Shown here piece after piece: positions 1 to 20,657 of a stretch of DNA of 20,657 nucleotides. The notes under the pieces were generated by a model. That model was not told where the DNA came from. It worked only from the letters and a program-made list of their open reading frames with translations, and searched no databases. Source of the DNA: a virus. The DNA is taken from positions 1 through 20,657 of the IMG/VR virus record IMGVR_UViG_3300047172_000189. One strand, written 5' to 3'. How positions within the stretch are numbered: position 1 is the stretch's first letter; the number at the start of each line of letters is the position of its first letter. The position numbers and the translations under genes were made by a program.

Positions 1-178
1 CCTAACCTTTCGCCAGGCACTCATGTCGGGAGTATTGCCTGTGGGAACTTGCTTTACGAAATCGCGATATCCTCGCGCATCGACATGGGAGACATTATGG
101 CACACGAACAATTTAAAGAAAAGAGGCGCGCTAACCCAGTCCTAAAGCACGGGGTTTGCGCGTGTCCAAGGGATCAAA
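1..178 (-). mobile_element. IS200/IS605-like terminal element, part 1 (continues from 20531-20657)
   Basis: With the window ends joined, 20531-20657 plus 1-178 form one structured element without a transposase gene. Read on the minus strand it starts near a hairpin at 133-156 (AACCCAGTCC / GGGGTT type, TAAA loop), passes a stem CAGGCA (14-19) / TGCCTG (36-41), and ends beyond the window junction at a hairpin of the kind found at TnpB-element right ends. Bases 59-178 match 11079-11198 in inverted orientation with a single difference (base 148), which weakens the hairpin. A short ORF starting at 97 (MAHEQFKEK) is preserved in both copies, but hairpin conservation explains it as well as coding does. 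Assignment to IS200/IS605 is inference from hairpin style and terminus, not from a transposase. Confidence 0.55.
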
Positions 179-4066: not shown

Positions 4067-4120
4067 ATGGGTTTAACCGCAGCAACAGTTCAGTATTTTA
4101 ACCTAGTGGGATTGATCTGA
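4067..4120 (+). CDS. 17-residue micro-ORF coupled to the fibre gene
   Basis: ATG at 4067 follows GAGG with five bases between, and encodes MGLTAATVQYFNLVGLI before a TGA whose last base is the A of the next gene's ATG (4120). This arrangement would feed ribosomes straight into the large S74 fibre gene, which has no other clear ribosome binding site. The peptide itself may have no function, and the ORF could be the remnant of a larger gene. Evidence is limited to spacing and start signals. Confidence 0.35.
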   Translation: MGLTAATVQYFNLVGLI

Positions 4121-6324
4121 TGCCAGCAACACCCGCAAACGCAATCAATGAGTCTGGGGCCAGCGGTCTGGTTAATTTTGACGGCACAGCTACCTTTAGC
4201 ACGACACCCGCTGCTATTTACAACGTTGTCTCTGGTGCTGGTGCGAATACTATCCACAATATCGTGCCTACCGCAACCTCTGGCGTACCTATTATTTCGC
4301 AAGGAAGCGCGGCTCAGCCTATTTTTGGTACAGCTGTAGTTTCGGGGGGTGGCACGGGAGCGGCGTCTTTCACCGCCTATGCGCCGCTTTGCGGAGGGAC
4401 CACAACTACGGGGATATTGCAGAGCGCCGCAACTGGAATCGGAACGTCGGGGACAGTTTTGACGAGCAATGGCGCTGCGGCTCTCCCTTCATTCCAGGCG
4501 CTGAGCGGTTTGGCGGTCACATCGATTACCGGAACCGCAAACCAGATCTCTGCGAGCGCAAGCACGGGTGCGGTTACCCTTTCAATTCCGACAACGGTGG
4601 CGATTGGAACGTCCAACACAGTGTCTACCTCTACGCAAATCACCCACAACGCAACAGCGGCTTACAATACTAGTCTTGTCGGTACTCAAACCTCGTTAGA
4701 CGTAAACAGTATTCAGCTGGGCCTAAATATCAGTAACATCTTCCAGCCAGCCAGCGATTCCACCTATTCCGCAGCTGTTTCTATTTCCGCAGATATGGCA
4801 CCAGCTTCTGGCAGAACGATTTCAACTAGCTTTGGGATTCTAGTGAATCCGACATTTGGAAATAGCGGAACAGTGGATTCGTATTACGGCGTGTATACCA
4901 ATTTTGCCAACGGAACCACCGGATCATTGACCTCTATCTACGGCGGATTTTTCAGTAACCCTTCGTACGGATCGGGAATTAATGTCGCCCTCTACTCCGA
5001 TGATGTTTCTGTAGGGTATGAAAGCGCCGCCCCAACGAATGGGTTGATCGTTAGCGGCATCTCTGGATTTGGAACGTCATCGCCCAATTCGGTTTCTCAA
5101 GTAACAGTCTCGTCGACATTGGCATTCAATATTTTAATGAATGGGATTCAGGCCGCTACGGATTCTGGAAATTCCGGTGGGTTAACCGTGGGCCTGAACG
5201 TCTCTCCCACATTCCGACCGACTCCTGGAGCGGGAAATGCCATTGGTTTGTACAGCTCATGCACATTCGCCGCTCTGACCTCTAAGACTATTTCTACAGC
5301 AGCAGCGATGTTGATTTATAACAATTATGGTGGAAACGCCGGAACGATTACAACTGCATATGGAATTTTTGTAAATACTGGAGGCGCCGGAGCGGGGACA
5401 ATCACCACATCGTACGGTTTATATTGTAGCGCCCCAACAGCTGGATCTACTAAAATTGCGATGTACACTGATAATCTTGCTGTAGGATATGCAGGTGTCG
5501 CTCCACCCAGCTCTGGAATGATCGTTAGCGGTCAGGTTGGTATTGGAACATCTGCACCAAATTCAGGCGCCGTTCTTCATATCCAAGGAACTGTTAATAA
5601 TCAGTACGCCTATCCTCTACTGGTTAATACGAATTTAACTCCATCAGGAGCAGGCGGTCAACAATTCGCGATCGCTAGCGAGCCAAAGTTTATAGCGGCC
5701 AGCGCCCAAACCATTACCGCAGCTTGTGGACTGTATGTATTCAACACAGTAAGCAGCAATGTCGGGACTATCTCCACTTTATATGGGATTTTGATAGACA
5801 CAACTAGTTCAGGAGCCGGAACCATTACAAACGCATATGGGCTATACTGCAATACTCCTATCTGCGCTACCAACAACTATTGCGCATATTTCCAGGGAAA
5901 TGTAGGAATTGGAACGCCGTCTCCAACATACGCTATCCACGTTGTAGGAACGCAGGGATCGACCACCTCAACCCTATGGACGCTGATTTCCGATGCCGCG
6001 ATCAAAAAAGACATAGAGAACGTAGAAGAAGCTCTCCCGATCATCAACTCACTTATACCTAGAAAATTCAGGTATACACAGGAGTGGTTTGACAACCACG
6101 ACGGCCATCCCGAAGACAAGATTTACTACGGGTTAGTAGCTCAGGAAGTAGAAAAGGTGATTCCATCGTGCATTCCTGTGCGCCGTCAAACTGTAGGTAA
6201 TCGCACGGGCTTGAAATCGCTGGACATGCACAACATCAACATCCTGCTCATTAAGGCCGTCCAAGAACTTAGCGCAGAAATCAAAGAACTAAAAGGAAAA
6301 ATATGCCAGACCCAACTTTTATAA
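4120..6324 (+). CDS. Tail fibre/tailspike with C-terminal peptidase S74 intramolecular chaperone
   Basis: This 734-residue protein has three parts. Residues 1-160 carry common fibre motifs (VVSGGGTGAASFTAYAPLCG, GTVLTSNGAAALPSFQ). Residues 180-610 hold three divergent copies of a module of about 130 residues, each containing YG(I/V/L)..., GTIT or GTVD turns, a (M/L)Y.D..VGY or YCAYFQGNVG strand, and a GxGTSxPNS-like end. The final 111 residues match the S74 chaperone: SDAAIKKDI at 624-632 gives the expected Ser624 with Lys629/630 for self-cleavage before Ser624, followed by KFRYT, YYGLVAQEVEKVIP and a C-terminal coiled coil. Family knowledge: the chaperone trimerises the fibre and then is cut off. 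The host receptor is unknown. The ATG at 4120 is translationally coupled to the micro-ORF. Confidence 0.85.
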   Translation: MPATPANAINESGASGLVNFDGTATFSTTPAAIYNVVSGAGANTIHNIVPTATSGVPIISQGSAAQPIFGTAVVSGGGTGAASFTAYAPLCGGTTTTGILQSAATGIGTSGTVLTSNGAAALPSFQALSGLAVTSITGTANQISASASTGAVTLSIPTTVAIGTSNTVSTSTQITHNATAAYNTSLVGTQTSLDVNSIQLGLNISNIFQPASDSTYSAAVSISADMAPASGRTISTSFGILVNPTFGNSGTVDSYYGVYTNFANGTTGSLTSIYGGFFSNPSYGSGINVALYSDDVSVGYESAAPTNGLIVSGISGFGTSSPNSVSQVTVSSTLAFNILMNGIQAATDSGNSGGLTVGLNVSPTFRPTPGAGNAIGLYSSCTFAALTSKTISTAAAMLIYNNYGGNAGTITTAYGIFVNTGGAGAGTITTSYGLYCSAPTAGSTKIAMYTDNLAVGYAGVAPPSSGMIVSGQVGIGTSAPNSGAVLHIQGTVNNQYAYPLLVNTNLTPSGAGGQQFAIASEPKFIAASAQTITAACGLYVFNTVSSNVGTISTLYGILIDTTSSGAGTITNAYGLYCNTPICATNNYCAYFQGNVGIGTPSPTYAIHVVGTQGSTTSTLWTLISDAAIKKDIENVEEALPIINSLIPRKFRYTQEWFDNHDGHPEDKIYYGLVAQEVEKVIPSCIPVRRQTVGNRTGLKSLDMHNINILLIKAVQELSAEIKELKGKICQTQLL

Positions 6325-11078: not shown

Positions 11079-11230
11079 TTTGATCCCTTGGACACGCGCA
11101 AACCCCGTCCTTTAGGACTGGGTTAGCGCGCCTCTTTTCTTTAAATTGTTCGTGTGCCATAATGTCTCCCATGTCGATGCGCGAGGATATCGCGATTTTG
11201 CAAAACCTGCAAGACGCCGTATGAATCTCC
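11079..11230 (+). mobile_element. Inverted, internally deleted copy of the terminal IS605-like element
   Basis: Bases 11079-11198 are the reverse complement of 59-178 (119 of 120 identical), and 11192-11230 of 20557-20595 (38 of 39). The 98 bp that separate these parts at the window junction are absent here. The join lies on AAATCGC, a 7-bp sequence present at both edges of that 98-bp stretch, as expected for deletion between short direct repeats. Homology stops at 11230, and a strong terminator takes the place of the terminal hairpin. The copy lies directly upstream of the ERF gene. Confidence 0.75.
11184..11212 (-). promoter_or_regulatory. Possible promoter for the ERF-exonuclease operon, inside the repeat
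   Basis: On the minus strand TTGCAG (11207-11212) and TATCCT (11184-11189) are separated by 17 bp. Each box matches four of six consensus bases. It is the best candidate seen upstream of the ERF gene, but matches of this quality occur by chance. Confidence 0.25.
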
Positions 11231-13685: not shown

Positions 13686-14930
13686 ATGCTATCACATAAA
13701 CAGCAAAAGTTTATAGATGAATCTACAGCGAAAATCAATATCGCTCATGGTTCTGTTCGTGGCGGAAAGACTTTTTCGACTTCTGTTCGCTTTGTGGAGC
13801 TTGTGATTGATTGCCCAAATAGCGAAATCATCATGATCGGTAACTCGTTCTCAACGATCAAGGCGAACGTTGTGGATTTACTGCTTAACGGGCCCTACCG
13901 TGGTTACTGTACTTGGAGTGATAAGAAACTAATATTTGGAGACAAGAAGATACGTGTGATCGGTGCCCACGACGAAGGTTCAGTACGAGCTATCCAGGGC
14001 AACACACATTCTCTTGCATACGTTGATGAACTTACTACTATTCCTTGGGGTTTTGTGGATATGCTCACGACTCGCCTATCTCACCCGTGGTCCAAAATGA
14101 TAGCTACCTGCAACCCGAATTCACCGGTACACCCGGTAAAGGAGAAGCTTATCGACTGCAATGACCCAAAATACTGCTACTCCCTCCATTTCGAAGTAGA
14201 CGACAATCCTACTCTTACCGAAGAATACAAGAACGACCTGCGAACCAAGTACTCAGGACTGTTCTATAAGAGATATATTTTGGGTGAATGGGTAGCCGCG
14301 GAAGGAGCGATTTACAGTGACTTTTCAAGAAAAACTCATGTTCTGGATCGCCCTCCTCATTATTCAGACAATTACTTTTGCGGTGTTGATTACGGCATCA
14401 ATAATGCTTTTGCCGCTGTACTTATTGGACAGAATAACACATACTCTCCGCATCTGTGGGTGGAAAAAGAGCTCTATTGGGACTCTGCCAAGACCTTTCG
14501 ACAAAAACTAAATTCAGAACTAGCAGATGATCTTCAGCAATTTTTGGATGGCTATAATGTGCGTGGGATTTACCTTGATCCTAGTGCTGAAAGCTTTGAG
14601 GTAGAGCTGAAGAGAAGGCATATGCGCGTGATTCAGGCAAAGAATGACGTTTATCCCGGGATTACCTTCATGGCTAATCTCATTGCCAATCACGAGCTAA
14701 AGATCGTAAAAGACTGCCCCAATACCATCGCTGAGATGGAGATGTATGTGTGGGATAGCAAGAAGTCAGCACGAGGCATAGAAGAGCCTGTAAAGAAGCG
14801 TGACCATTGCATGGACGCACTGAGATATGGTGTATTCACACCATTTGGATTAAAGAAAAACTTACGATGGGGAGATCTAACAGATGACGGAAGAGCGCTC
14901 GGAAGCGGGCCAAGAACAAGCAGATTTTAA
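13686..14930 (+). CDS. terL: Terminase large subunit (packaging ATPase/nuclease)
   Basis: This 414-residue protein carries a Walker A motif GSVRGGKT (22-29), a Walker B SLAYVDEL with Asp114 and the catalytic Glu115, and the coupling motif TCNPNSP (141-147). The RNase-H-like nuclease follows, with Asp235 (CGVDYG), Asp298 (IYLDPS) and the KRDHCMDALRYG segment (Asp373/Asp377). It translocates DNA into the prohead at the portal and cuts the concatemer. Start 13686 lacks a clear ribosome binding site, but the N-terminus fits the family. The length matches short terminases of the Terminase_6 type. A 44-residue gene overlaps its 3' end. Confidence 0.93.
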   Translation: MLSHKQQKFIDESTAKINIAHGSVRGGKTFSTSVRFVELVIDCPNSEIIMIGNSFSTIKANVVDLLLNGPYRGYCTWSDKKLIFGDKKIRVIGAHDEGSVRAIQGNTHSLAYVDELTTIPWGFVDMLTTRLSHPWSKMIATCNPNSPVHPVKEKLIDCNDPKYCYSLHFEVDDNPTLTEEYKNDLRTKYSGLFYKRYILGEWVAAEGAIYSDFSRKTHVLDRPPHYSDNYFCGVDYGINNAFAAVLIGQNNTYSPHLWVEKELYWDSAKTFRQKLNSELADDLQQFLDGYNVRGIYLDPSAESFEVELKRRHMRVIQAKNDVYPGITFMANLIANHELKIVKDCPNTIAEMEMYVWDSKKSARGIEEPVKKRDHCMDALRYGVFTPFGLKKNLRWGDLTDDGRALGSGPRTSRF

Positions 14931-15375: not shown

Positions 15376-16075
15376 CCTTGCCACGCCTCGCCATGCCACG
15401 CCTTGCCTTGCCAAGCCTCGCCATGCCACGCCAGGCCATGCCGAGCCTTGCCGCATTAAAGAGCTCGCGCCCACATAAAACCATGCCACGCGTTGCCTTG
15501 CCGTGCCGTGCCACGCCATGCCTTGCCTGGCCATGCCCCTCCAAACCATGCCTGGCCGTTCCAAATTAAAGAGCTTGCGCCCACATAAAACCATGCCACG
15601 CCTTGCCAGGCCATGCCACGCCAGGCCGTGCCAGGCCGTGCCTGGCCTTGCCACGCCATGCCGAGCCTTGCCAAATTAAAGAGCTTGCGCCCACATAAAA
15701 CCATGCCACGCGTTGCCTTGCCTTGCCTTGCCGTGCCACGCCCTGCCAGGCCTCGCCATGCCACGCCAGGCCTTGCCTGGCCTCGCCATGCCACGCCAGG
15801 CCATGCCGCATTAAAGAGCTTGCGCCCACATAAAACCATGCCATGCCACGCCTCGCCATGCCTGGCCAGGCCACGCCTTGCCCTGTAAAATTAAAGAGCT
15901 TGCGCCCACATAAAACCATGCCACGCGTTGCCTTGCCGTGCCGTGCCTGGCCTTGCCTGGCCCTGCCCTGCCGTGCCTGGCCATGCCGCATTAAAGAGCT
16001 TGCGCCCACATAAAACCTTGCCAGGCCATGCCAGGCCATGCCACGCCATGCCTGGCCGTGCCTGGCCATGCCTTG
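15376..16075. repeat. Pentanucleotide (CCNNG)n array punctuated by six 30-bp conserved linkers
   Basis: The 700 bp are in strict 5-bp register (140 units). Seven blocks of 15, 16, 16, 21, 10, 14 and 12 pentamers (104 in all) alternate with six 30-bp linkers at 15451, 15561, 15671, 15806, 15886 and 15986. Ninety-eight of the 104 pentamers fit CCNNG; the inner two bases vary over TT, AC, TC, AT, AA, AG, GA, GT, TG and CT, and CCTAG never occurs. Exceptions are CGTTG (third or same relative position in blocks 2, 4 and 6) and three odd units in block 2. The linkers end in a 26-bp core that starts ATTAAAGAGCTTGCGC and ends CACATAAAA, identical in five copies with one change in the first. The array is a convergent intergenic region. 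Long open frames occur because the 5-bp unit lacks stops; none has a start signal. Confidence 0.95.
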
Positions 16076-16089
16076 CAGTTAGTATTTCT

Positions 16090-16677
16090 TTAATGTTCTT
16101 TAGATTGTGAAAAACTCAATAGCTTAAACCTGCCGAAACCGATCTTTCGACCGTCTCCAATTCCTTCAAATAATCCTGCATTTTCGATGCAAGCCTTCAT
16201 GTCTTCTTTCGATACTGCTCGATCGTCCCAGCTCAAGGTAGCGTTCATCTTCCAGCCTTCCTTCGCACCGATCCGGTATCTCAAGTTTCTTCCTTTCGTC
16301 ATGGGGTTGACAACGCTTCGAACGTCCAAATAGACTAACTCATCAGGTTTCCTCAAAAGCTCGCTATCTAATGGCACGAATCGATCTATAAGCAAAACCT
16401 GGTCGTCTAAAACCTCCAGAGTGGCTCCCACCTTCTTGGAAAGGTTACCCTTCCCAACCTTGATATGCTTCCCTCCTCCCACGATCGAACCAACCAAATA
16501 AGTGTTGTAAACGTAAAGATTTCGGTCTGAGGTCATAAGTACAGTCTTCTTCCACGACTCTTCATCATTACCCGTCGTACCACTCTTTGATTTAGAGGAA
16601 GAAAGAGTGTCAATTGGAAATGTGTTGAATAGAATTTGTTTGACGCCTTCAATAGAAATGTCGTAATAAATTTTCAT
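16090..16677 (-). CDS. Phage protein with a RAMP-like glycine-rich C-terminal loop
   Basis: ATG 16677 is chosen over an upstream in-frame ATG at 16719 because AAGGAG lies immediately before it, giving 195 residues. The N-terminus is MKIYYDISIEGVKQILFN, a beta-alpha start typical of a family of phage proteins of unknown function. The middle has Lys-rich patches (GGGKHIKVGKGNLSKK). The C-terminus is GLFEGIGDGRKIGFGRFKLL, containing GIG-DGRKI-GFG, the GxG-x5-GFG spacing of the G-rich loop in RAMP/ferredoxin-like RNA-binding proteins such as Cas6. The match is one motif only. It is convergent with the 15147 gene, and the pentamer array begins 15 bp beyond its stop. A usable promoter lies at 16774-16803. 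Confidence 0.6.
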   Translation of the reverse strand: MKIYYDISIEGVKQILFNTFPIDTLSSSKSKSGTTGNDEESWKKTVLMTSDRNLYVYNTYLVGSIVGGGKHIKVGKGNLSKKVGATLEVLDDQVLLIDRFVPLDSELLRKPDELVYLDVRSVVNPMTKGRNLRYRIGAKEGWKMNATLSWDDRAVSKEDMKACIENAGLFEGIGDGRKIGFGRFKLLSFSQSKEH

Positions 16678-16773
16678 AATCTCCTTTTGAAATTTAAAAA
16701 CATTCCAATGTGATATCATAAGGTGGAATTTAAGAACAGAGGATTCTCAAAATCAGGGAAGGTAATTTTATTC

Positions 16774-16803
16774 ATTATAGTTTTTATTTTAAATTGCCGC
16801 CAA
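16774..16803 (-). promoter_or_regulatory. Sigma70-like promoter for the RAMP-motif gene
   Basis: On the minus strand TATAAT (16774-16779, perfect) lies 18 bp after TTGGCG (16798-16803, four of six). It sits about 97 bp upstream of ATG 16677, in the AT-rich gap before the divergent DUF551 genes. Confidence 0.5.
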
Positions 16804-16902
16804 AATGTCCGGAATGGCATAGTTTCCGTTGACAGATCTTGGGCCGCCAGCTTGAGCAAGAAGATGTTTTTCGGGTGGCCCCATTTAGGAGTAAGAGGAT
16901 GT

Positions 16903-17106
16903 ATGGACGGTTGGATTAGCGTTAAGGTTAGATTGCCGGAAGAAGACGACACGGCTTGTCTGGTATACGATATTGGATCGAATCGAACCCCGGTGGTCGC
17001 TTGGTATGAGTTTGATGGCGTACCTGCTGGATTTTATACGAAAGAGACCCATTTCAGGATTATTGTAACTCACTGGATGCCGTTACCAAAGGCTCCAAGT
17101 GAGTGA
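16903..17106 (+). CDS. DUF551 protein (first of two tandem copies)
   Basis: ATG 16903 follows AGAGG by four bases and gives 67 residues: MDGWISVKVRLPEEDDTACL, then YDIGSNRTPVVAWYEFDG, and the closing THWMPLPKAPSE. The N-terminal WISVK.RLP and the C-terminal HWMPLP.P are the DUF551 signature. Function unknown; these proteins are frequent in phage early or accessory regions. A longer frame from 16723 has no ribosome binding site and a hydrophobic stretch that looks accidental. The stop overlaps the next gene by 8 bp. Confidence 0.75.
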   Translation: MDGWISVKVRLPEEDDTACLVYDIGSNRTPVVAWYEFDGVPAGFYTKETHFRIIVTHWMPLPKAPSE

Positions 17107-17317
17107 ATGGATAAGCGTTAAAGAACGAATTCCCGTCGACAATGAGTATGTATTGGCGCTTGCTAGGTTGATGAAGGATGGCACGGGAGTGGAAACGCCG
17201 ATTTTGGCTCAATTTAATCGATGCTTCGGGTGGGTTTTATGCAATAAAATGATATCAAATGATATCTTATCCTCTGTGAGATACTGGATGCCGTTACCCG
17301 AGTTCCCAAACGTCTGA
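17099..17317 (+). CDS. DUF551 protein (second tandem copy)
   Basis: This 72-residue protein uses GTG 17099, overlapping the first copy. It has WISVKERIP near the N-terminus and YWMPLPEFPNV at the end, again DUF551. The middle (MKDGTGVETPILAQFNRCFGWVLC) differs completely from that of its neighbour, so the duplication is old or the genes were acquired separately. A weak inverted repeat followed by T (TGCTTGATCAGCA near 17346-17363) lies beyond the stop. Confidence 0.72.
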   Translation: MSEWISVKERIPVDNEYVLALARLMKDGTGVETPILAQFNRCFGWVLCNKMISNDILSSVRYWMPLPEFPNV

Positions 17318-17843: not shown

Positions 17844-19922
17844 GTGAATGTTCGCCAATGGCTCGATAATCTCTACAGCAAGTTCCAGCCCATCGAACAA
17901 GCCCGATGGAACCAAAGCAATATCGACACTCTATTTTACGCAGGTTCACAGACATTCATCAATCGATATTTTAATTTCACTCCATCATTCAGCTACCAGA
18001 ACTTCTACTTCAACCTGATCCAGCAACCCGTAAATATGGTCACTGGCTATCAACGCCAACACCGCAAAAACATCAATTACATCCCCTCTGAAGGTGCTGA
18101 CCCAAATACGACCGACCAGTACACTCGCCTCGTTACTCACATTTCCAACACAGAAGGGATCAATGAGCAATTTTCTAAAGCGTGTGAATTGGCAGCGGTT
18201 AGCGGAATGGTTCTTCTTCAGCCTTACTTGGATTATACTGGGGACGATCCTGCTCAAGGGTCACTGCGGCTCAAGATATGGGAATACAACGCATTCCTCG
18301 TTGATCCATACTTCCGAAACCCCGATATGTCAGATGCTCAGTTCGTCTGGTGCCAAGAATACATCTCCAAGAAAGAAGCTGAGGCAAGATTCCCCGATAA
18401 GATCGGAAACATTTCCCCAATGGCCGGCACTCCGCAGCGTTACGGATCATTTTACTTCTTGCCCGAAAACTACAACATGGCTCGTAACGACCTCATGGTC
18501 TTATCCTACGTGTGGTACAAATGGAAAAAGAAGAAAAAGCGATTGTATTCTGCCCAAAGAAATCAATTTTTCGACTTCGGAGGCGGCGAGCCGCAACTCG
18601 ACCAGATCTTATATCATATCCCTGACCTGGAAGTTGTAGAAATTGAAGTACCAACATGGAAATTAGCAACAGTCCTGAATGATCAACTTATGTTCCAAGG
18701 GGACAATCCCCTGGGTTTTGACAGTTGTCCCTTCATACCGGTCTTCTGGAACTACGAACCCCATATTAATTATTACGATCTTCGGGTTCGTTCTCTTATT
18801 AAGACAATGCGAGACCCACAATTTCTTTTGAATCGTAGAATCATCCTCAATCACGATATCAGCGAATCTTCGATCAACACGGGATATAAACGAAAGGTTG
18901 GGGCGGTTGGAAATGAAGACAACCTGAAGAAGTCTGGCCAAGGCTGGGATATCTTAATCAACGAAGGTTACGAGATGACCGACGTAGAGAAGATTATTCC
19001 TAACGCCGTTCCCCCCTCGGACATGGCTTTAGCCGATCAGCTCACGAATCTCATCTTCAGCGTCTCCGGCATCAATATGGAGAGCTGGACTGGAGATGAT
19101 CAAAAACAGCTGTCTGGTCTTACTCTGATGTTGAAACAAGCGGCTAATCTCACCATCCTGCAAAAGTACTTCGATCAATGGGATTTCAGCCTAAAACAGC
19201 TGGGAGACAGGATTCTACAGATCATTCTCAATGGGTGGAATGCTCAGAAAGTAGGCCTTATCATAGGCGAAGAGCCAAGTCCTCACTTTTTCTCACGTAT
19301 ATTTGCCAAATACCAAGTGATAGTGGAAGAGGGAGCGAATACTCCAACTCAGCAAGCCGCCCAGGCTCAGCAATTACTCGAGATCAATCAGATCTACGGA
19401 CGAGAGGTGTTTCCGCCATCGTTCGTGATCAAGAACATGAATCTATCGGGCAAAGCAGAGGCGATGGAGTTCTTGCAGCAGCAAGAGCAACAAGCGTCGT
19501 CACAAGCGGAACATGCGCAGATGGTCGCGGGTGCGCTTGAAGAAGCTAAACTCAAAGAGCTGTATTCTAAGGCTGTCAGCAACATCGCTACCGCCCGCGA
19601 GAAACATGGTCGTGCCGAGAGCAACATAGGGTTATTTGAGGAAAGATTATCGATGATCGGGCGCAACAACAGCATGAGCGCAAAAGCTAAAGCTGAAGCT
19701 CTCGAGAAGCTCGTTGAAGTGACCCATCGCTATGGTGAGCTCGAGGCTCATCTCAAGATGAACGAACTTGAATCGATCGACAATCAGGAAGAGAACAAGG
19801 AAGCGATGGCGAAAGCCGACGCTAAACGAACTTCGATGGCGAACGATTTTGTCGCACAGATGCTGGCAGGTGGTATGAGTGGTCAGCAGGTTCAAGAACA
19901 GGGTCAAATGCAAGGGCAATAG
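17844..19922 (+). CDS. P22-like portal protein
   Basis: This 692-residue protein begins at GTG 17844 and reads NVRQWLDNLYSKFQPIEQAR and then NQSNIDTLFYAGSQTF. The long, tryptophan- and tyrosine-rich core (QNFYFNLIQQPVNMVTGYQR, LAAVSGMVLLQPYLDY, WEYNAFLVDPYFRNPDMSDAQ) and its size, close to the P22 portal (725 residues), support a portal. Residues 450-692 are mostly helical with a Gln/Ala-rich end (QQQEQQASSQAEHAQMVAG), comparable with the C-terminal barrel of P22. The portal forms the dodecameric DNA entry channel on which the terminase docks. No prohead, scaffold or coat gene follows it as they do in P22. The ribosome binding site is weak. Confidence 0.8.
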   Translation: MNVRQWLDNLYSKFQPIEQARWNQSNIDTLFYAGSQTFINRYFNFTPSFSYQNFYFNLIQQPVNMVTGYQRQHRKNINYIPSEGADPNTTDQYTRLVTHISNTEGINEQFSKACELAAVSGMVLLQPYLDYTGDDPAQGSLRLKIWEYNAFLVDPYFRNPDMSDAQFVWCQEYISKKEAEARFPDKIGNISPMAGTPQRYGSFYFLPENYNMARNDLMVLSYVWYKWKKKKKRLYSAQRNQFFDFGGGEPQLDQILYHIPDLEVVEIEVPTWKLATVLNDQLMFQGDNPLGFDSCPFIPVFWNYEPHINYYDLRVRSLIKTMRDPQFLLNRRIILNHDISESSINTGYKRKVGAVGNEDNLKKSGQGWDILINEGYEMTDVEKIIPNAVPPSDMALADQLTNLIFSVSGINMESWTGDDQKQLSGLTLMLKQAANLTILQKYFDQWDFSLKQLGDRILQIILNGWNAQKVGLIIGEEPSPHFFSRIFAKYQVIVEEGANTPTQQAAQAQQLLEINQIYGREVFPPSFVIKNMNLSGKAEAMEFLQQQEQQASSQAEHAQMVAGALEEAKLKELYSKAVSNIATAREKHGRAESNIGLFEERLSMIGRNNSMSAKAKAEALEKLVEVTHRYGELEAHLKMNELESIDNQEENKEAMAKADAKRTSMANDFVAQMLAGGMSGQQVQEQGQMQGQ

Positions 19923-20530: not shown

Positions 20531-20657
20531 TTGACATCCTCCCCTTCCTAAAGGAAGGAGATTCCTACGGCGTCTTGCAGGTTTTGCAAAATCGCTTCGG
20601 TAGGTACTTTCGACCCGTTAGGAATTATCCTAACCTTTCGCCAGGCACTCATGTCGG
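20531..20657 (-). mobile_element. IS200/IS605-like terminal element, part 2 (3' end, inserted in the methyltransferase)
   Basis: On the minus strand the element ends ...CGTAGGAATCTCC, hairpin CCTTCC-TTTA-GGAAGG (20543-20558), then GGAGGATGTCAA, flush with the methyltransferase at 20530/20531. This layout resembles the ends of TnpB-type elements (compare the GTGAGGTTCAA end of ISDra2), where the omega RNA scaffold stops and the guide begins. Inside, GTTAGGA-ATTA-TCCTAAC (20617-20634) forms a perfect hairpin across the window junction. Bases 20557-20595 match the inverted copy at 11192-11230 with one difference. No tnpA or tnpB is present. Identification is by structure and terminus, not by a sequence search. 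Confidence 0.55.

What the first reader, a model, noticed from the sequence alone, without database searches (positions are those of the whole stretch)
15376..16075. A 700-bp array of degenerate pentamers in perfect 5-bp register, cut into seven blocks by six identical linkers
Every base falls in a 5-bp grid: 104 CCNNG-type units and six 30-bp linkers, exactly 140 units. The conserved frame but variable inner dinucleotides (10 of 16 seen, none TA) rule out simple microsatellite slippage, where units would be identical. Shared openings of blocks 2, 4 and 6 (CCATG CCACG CGTTG CCTTG) show that block-plus-linker units have been duplicated. The array lies downstream of terL and beside a RAMP-motif protein. 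Possible roles: packaging or binding site read by a modular protein, a structured or processed RNA, a recombination track, or a written record. I know of no described element with this design.
Basis: seen in the sequence. Interest (0 to 1): 0.92.

Follow-up and report, generated by a model that had tools for sequence, protein, structure and literature searches.

The report
Phage VIPR guide-RNA array, seven guides
The 700-bp pentamer array is a set of seven guide RNAs of a recently described phage RNA-guided system (VIPR), read on the opposite strand together with its CRISPR-like partner protein next door, and this copy is an unusually divergent member of that system.

Summary
The informative strand is the minus strand, where the array reads (CNNGG)n and starts 14 bp after the stop of a minus-strand gene (16090-16677). 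That gene encodes a small RAMP protein: PHROG phrog_4652, with a predicted fold matching Csm3/Cas7. I searched viral contigs for (CCNNG)10 alone: 92 of 121 loci carry a relative of this protein, 91 on the GGCNN strand, at a median 24 bp from the array; 0 of 141 control loci do. Eight sequenced phages carrying the protein have GGYNN arrays beside it. One is Escherichia phage SUSP1, in which a 2026 preprint (PMC13142463) described this architecture as VIPR: a RAMP protein plus 'vrRNAs' of alternating GGY/NN units and a 3' tail, whose NN pairs recognise DNA under a one-base skip rule. The 'linkers' are best read as vrRNA 3' tails, and the array as seven guides, six with tails. This is a new, highly divergent member (at most about 26% identity to other Viprs sampled). 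The two accessory families tested were not found, and no target could be identified.

The parts
16090..16677 (-). vipr gene, 195-aa RAMP protein (the ORF is open to 16719; the ATG at 16677 is preferred)
   Evidence: phrog_4652 E=3e-8; HMM built without this sequence E=2.6e-25; AlphaFold model pLDDT 80, pTM 0.78; Foldseek best hits Csm-complex Cas7/Csm3-type subunits E=8.7e-9, prob 1.00; AGGAG Shine-Dalgarno just before the ATG at 16677
15376..16075 (-). vrRNA array: seven (YNNGG)n tracts with six tails between them
16016..16075 (-). vrRNA 1 tract, 12 units; NN = AA AT CA AC CA AT GT AT CT AT CT AA
15991..16015 (-). tail 1 TTTTATGTGGGCGCAAGCTCTTTAA
15916..15990 (-). vrRNA 2 tract, 14-15 units
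15891..15915 (-). tail 2
15836..15890 (-). vrRNA 3 tract, 10-11 units
15811..15835 (-). tail 3
15701..15810 (-). vrRNA 4 tract, 21-22 units, longer than the 9-16 reported and with an internal duplication CCTGG CGTGG CATGG CGAGG
15676..15700 (-). tail 4
15591..15675 (-). vrRNA 5 tract, 16-17 units
15566..15590 (-). tail 5
15481..15565 (-). vrRNA 6 tract, up to 17 units, several imperfect (AACGG, TTTGG, AGGGG, CAACG)
15456..15480 (-). tail 6; tetraloop GCGA instead of GCAA (still GNRA)
15376..15455 (-). vrRNA 7 tract, 15-16 units, no canonical tail after it
16774..16803 (-). candidate sigma-70-type promoter for vipr and the array (TTGGCG-18-TATAAT)
   Evidence: consensus scan only

Best explanation
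This is a VIPR locus (Viral Interference Programmable Repeat) of a tailed phage. A minus-strand RAMP protein (Vipr) is encoded directly upstream of seven tandem vrRNA tracts made of YNNGG repeats, six of them followed by a 25-nt hairpin tail. Inferred mechanism, by transfer from the published systems: the transcript yields individual vrRNAs; Vipr binds the regularly spaced GGY motifs; the displayed NN dinucleotides pair with double-stranded DNA as NN-skip-NN-skip; the bound complex represses genes of competing phages or satellites. Shown here: the array, its strand, its coupling to a phrog_4652/RAMP gene, the Cas7/Csm3-like predicted fold, and the same architecture in SUSP1 and seven other sequenced phages. 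Inferred: transcription, processing, the tail's role, DNA targeting and the identity of the target.
For: Exact pentamer register. Seven GGYNN runs on the minus strand of the 41-kb sister record and none elsewhere. Loci chosen by pattern alone: 92 of 121 carry a Vipr homologue, 91 on the GGCNN strand, median distance 24 bp; 0 of 141 loci chosen by unrelated patterns do (38 of the positive loci contributed to the HMM, the rest did not). 38 of 39 adjacent proteins match one PHROG, phrog_4652. SUSP1 Vipr, the protein studied in PMC13142463, matches the same PHROG at 1.4e-96. Arrays of 6-17 GGY units lie on the vipr strand in LESphi2, DSL-LC04, Medea1, UmaThurman, prophiBWHA-1, HY02, Brocalys and SUSP1, against at most 5 in random sequence. 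Fold: Csm3/Cas7-type CRISPR subunits. Published description of GGY/NN vrRNAs with a 3' tail and 1-nt skip.
Against: No vap accessory gene was found: neither phrog_5926 (SUSP1 Vap1) nor phrog_15946 occurs in the 41-kb record, with positive controls ringing. The window Vipr is very divergent (end branch 2.55, best identity 26%) and lacks the common 'RP' of the G-loop. The tail hairpin has only 4 bp and does not fold clearly better than shuffles (z -1.5 and -0.9), unlike the tails of L003 and L013 (z -4 to -5). vrRNA 7 has no tail. No convincing target was found.
Confidence: 0.86

Rival explanations
1. A decaying VIPR relic: the locus descends from VIPR but no longer silences anything in this phage.
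For: Imperfect units in vrRNA 6 and CAACG units, tail-less last tract, no accessory gene found, no target found; divergent Vipr.
Against: The Vipr ORF is intact with the residues invariant across the family; 140 pentamers hold register with no indel; the tail core has one change in six copies, within a GNRA loop.
Confidence: 0.1
2. A DNA-level element: a recombination, packaging or replication track bound as DNA by a protein.
For: Block-plus-tail duplications show recombination within the array; the array lies near terL.
Against: The array is coupled in strand and distance to a RAMP gene in 91 of 92 loci, not to terL; SUSP1 arrays of the same kind are experimentally transcribed guides.
Confidence: 0.02
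3. A CRISPR-like array in which the linkers are the repeats and the pentamer blocks the spacers.
For: Repeated 25-bp element between variable blocks; RAMP protein next door.
Against: Blocks are internally periodic and 55-110 bp long, and the published homologues read only the NN pairs as guide. No dedicated cas1/cas2 search was done; none was seen among the ORFs scanned.
Confidence: 0.01
4. A protein-coding repeat (period 15 nt gives pentapeptide repeats in several frames).
For: Open frames cross the array on both strands, up to 167 aa.
Against: Frames are open in many phases at once, as any (CCNNG)n gives; across phages the arrays are intergenic, mostly just after a stop codon.
Confidence: 0.01

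Closest known systems
VIPR systems (PMC13142463), experimental example Escherichia phage SUSP1
   Same: RAMP protein of the same PHROG; GGY/NN tandem tracts on the vipr strand; invariable 3' tail; several vrRNAs in one array; phage-encoded
   Different: Vipr only distantly related (window protein at most 26% identical to any sampled Vipr); SUSP1 Vap1 family not found; all seven tracts downstream; GGC rather than mostly GGT; short GNRA hairpin tail; one tract of about 21 units
CRISPR-Cas type III Cas7 (Csm3)
   Same: Predicted fold (Foldseek E=8.7e-9) and C-terminal glycine-rich loop
   Different: Single small protein, no repeat-spacer array, periodic noncontiguous guide
VIPR-type loci in Pseudomonas LESphi2 and Mycobacterium Brocalys (found here)
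   Same: vipr with GGCNN arrays on the same strand
   Different: vipr is followed by a gene of phrog_5926 or phrog_15946, not found in the window phage

Membership tests
VIPR | RAMP protein with RRM core and glycine-rich loop, of the Vipr family | tested here: met
   phrog_4652, HMM without the window sequence E=2.6e-25, Csm3/Cas7-like model
VIPR | Noncoding tracts of alternating GGY/NN (YNNGG) repeats on the vipr strand beside vipr | tested here: met
   seven tracts, 10-21 GGY units
VIPR | 9-16 repeats per vrRNA | tested here: inconclusive
   five or six of seven tracts fit, depending on how end units are counted; vrRNA 4 has 21-22
VIPR | Invariable structured 3' tail after each tract | tested here: inconclusive
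   25-nt element after six of seven tracts, 4-bp GNRA hairpin in both variants, but fold not clearly better than shuffles
VIPR | vap accessory gene next to vipr (typical) | tested here: not met
   phrog_5926 and phrog_15946 absent from the 41-kb record with positive controls; only these two families could be tested, the other vap families of the preprint could not. The preprint calls the vap gene typical, so this is not read as excluding membership
VIPR | Carried mainly by phages or proviruses | tested here: met
   terL and P22-like portal in the window; IMG/VR virus record
VIPR | NN pairs match a target with a 1-nt skip | tested here: inconclusive
   six vrRNAs searched in viral contigs and one of them in genomes; hits no better than chance
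VIPR | vrRNA expressed and bound by Vipr; DNA binding and repression | not testable with these tools
   needs experiment
CRISPR-Cas | Repeat-spacer array with contiguous spacers | tested here: not met
   blocks are 5-nt periodic
CRISPR-Cas | cas1/cas2 adaptation genes | not tested
   no dedicated search made; none among the ORFs scanned

The most novel reading that the evidence does not exclude
The locus represents a VIPR lineage outside the seven published types: a solitary, accessory-free Vipr with an all-downstream array of seven vrRNAs, carried as an antisense cassette between terL and the portal gene.
Probability: 0.2. Interest if true: 0.6.

Novelty: new member of a known kind. Interest (0 to 1): 0.5.

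Why it matters
VIPR is proposed to be an ancestor of CRISPR with a noncontiguous guide code. The window copy is a distant relative that appears to work, if it works, without a known accessory protein, which makes the minimal requirements of the system testable.

Tried and rejected
Rfam: no family. tRNAs: none. A first literature search with 'pentameric repeats' found nothing relevant. The window Vipr has no close relative in genome contigs. Pfam has no model for the family. Target search: 8-10-unit decoded patterns of vrRNAs 1, 2, 3, 5, 6 and 7 in viral contigs and of vrRNA 1 in genomes gave hits whose flanking units match at or near background, or lie in low-complexity coding repeats; vrRNA 3 gave none and vrRNA 4 was not searched. 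No self-target in the phage. I considered the Wang-Griffith nucleosome-excluding (G/C)3NN motif from memory; it does not explain the strand coupling to a RAMP gene.

Full report
OBSERVATION. The 700 bp at 15376-16075 divide into exactly 140 pentamers: 98 strict CCNNG, six near-units and six 30-bp linkers. Five units in a row occur 62 times, all in the array, against none in 100 dinucleotide shuffles. The pattern is on one strand only, and its reversed control has no match. The linker core TTAAAGAGCT[T/C]GCGCCCACATAAAA is 25 bp and has one variant copy. A second IMG/VR record of 41,229 bp holds the same array and 8.8 kb around it at 100% identity.

THE OTHER STRAND AND THE NEIGHBOUR. On the minus strand the array reads CNNGG, that is GGC plus two variable bases. 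It begins 14 bp after the stop codon of a minus-strand gene. The start at 16677 is preferred, because an AGGAG stands just before that ATG and relatives begin at the equivalent residue. The flanking terL (13686-14930) and portal (17844-19922) genes are on the plus strand, so vipr plus array sit as an antisense cassette between them.

AN UNBIASED TEST. I searched 2.9 million viral contigs for (CCNNG)10 only, with nothing about the protein. Nearly all arrays use many different NN pairs, and in each locus the arrays lie on one strand only. The gene just upstream on the G-rich strand kept ending in the same motif, of the kind G(I/V)GDFRPxFGRF. 39 such proteins align with five invariant columns, and 38 of them match one PHROG of unknown function, phrog_4652; Pfam has no model. 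With an HMM, 92 of 121 array-chosen loci hold a relative, against 0 of 141 loci brought in by unrelated patterns. 91 of the 92 lie on the GGCNN strand, at a median 24 bp from the array. Thirty-eight of these loci contributed to the HMM; the others did not. The 29 loci without a relative include simple microsatellites with one to three NN types and stretches cut near the array.

SEQUENCED PHAGES. Starting instead from the protein, I found annotated phages that carry it: LESphi2, DSL-LC04, Medea1, UmaThurman, prophiBWHA-1, HY02 and Brocalys. All seven have GGYNN runs beside the gene, on its strand, of 6 to 17 units, against at most 5 in random sequence of similar dinucleotide content. The Felix O1-like phage HY02 uses mostly GGT, others GGC.

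THE KNOWN SYSTEM. A literature search with the motif and 'RNA-guided' led to PMC13142463, which describes VIPR. Vipr is a RAMP protein; vrRNAs have 9-16 YNNGG repeats and an invariable 3' tail. The NN pairs specify double-stranded DNA with one skipped base between pairs, and the complex represses genes, mostly of competing phages. Its experimental model is Escherichia phage SUSP1. I fetched SUSP1: its Vipr matches phrog_4652 at 1.4e-96, its Vap1 matches phrog_5926, and its intergenic regions contain GGYNN tracts.

STRUCTURE. The AlphaFold model of the window protein (39 sequences, pLDDT 80, pTM 0.78) matches Csm3-type subunits of CRISPR Csm complexes (E=8.7e-9, probability 1.00, TM 0.55). This agrees with a RAMP fold. 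The thumb domain was not examined.

ANATOMY OF THE GUIDES. In the direction of transcription there are seven tracts with 12, 14, 10, 21, 17, 14 and 16 GGY units, six followed by TTTTATGTGGGCGC[A/G]AGCTCTTTAA. This element folds into a 4-bp hairpin with a GNRA loop in both variants, although shuffles fold nearly as well. In other array loci the inter-block element is a strong hairpin (L013, L003; z -4 to -5), supporting the reading of linkers as tails. The tail-proximal units of vrRNAs 2, 4 and 6 are shared, so guide-plus-tail units have been duplicated and then diverged towards the 5' end. The sister record has no other GGYNN run.

WHAT IS DIFFERENT HERE. The window Vipr has the longest branch of 47 sampled (2.55 against a median of 0.56) and at most 26% identity to any other, yet an HMM made without it finds it at 2.6e-25. 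Neither vap family that I could recognise (phrog_5926 of SUSP1 and LESphi2; phrog_15946 of Brocalys) is in the 41-kb record, while both ring in their control phages. Other vap families of the preprint could not be tested.

TARGETS. I decoded the tracts with the 1-nt skip rule and searched viral contigs with vrRNAs 1, 2, 3, 5, 6 and 7 and genomes with vrRNA 1. The hits' flanking units match little better than background. The genome hits lie in a low-complexity repeat region of Mammaliicoccus, a Bacillus contig and a short frame of a MAG. No target is claimed.

VERDICT. The feature is real, and it is a VIPR guide array with its Vipr gene (about 0.95 for the class, 0.86 for working as described). 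Activity in this phage is inferred and the target is unknown. Novelty: a new, divergent member of a kind described in 2026; an eighth type cannot be excluded.

Noticed in passing
window 1-178, 11079-11204 and 20531-20657; sister record L134-L136 (14018-14296, 20291-20569, 31471-31722, and both ends): A 250-280-bp dispersed repeat occurs three times in full in the 41-kb sister contig, in both orientations, and in part at both its ends; the window record begins and ends inside copies, so it is probably a fragment of a genome of about 41 kb cut at repeats. One copy supplies the first residues of the ERF ORF (MAHEQFKEKRRANPVLKDGVCACPRDQ).
   Followed up: partly
L003-L122 (IMG/VR loci with arrays), e.g. 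L066, L117, L076: VIPR-like arrays turn up in about 90 viral contigs with a single DNA pattern; several loci have arrays on both sides of vipr, and some have arrays but no recognisable vipr in the stretch held (e.g. L122, L094, L046).
   Followed up: partly
L129 4570-5025 and 16 members of alignment A2: phrog_15946 (about 150 aa, unknown function) follows vipr in Brocalys and is the commonest other neighbour family of the array loci; phrog_5926 is the family of SUSP1 Vap1 and also follows vipr in LESphi2.
   Followed up: partly
window 16723-17317: Two adjacent DUF551 proteins (E=9e-10 and 2e-8) lie directly upstream of vipr on the opposite strand, perhaps a local duplication.
   Followed up: no
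window 4120-6324: A 734-aa protein with a C-terminal Peptidase_S74 chaperone, probably a tail fibre or spike.
   Followed up: no
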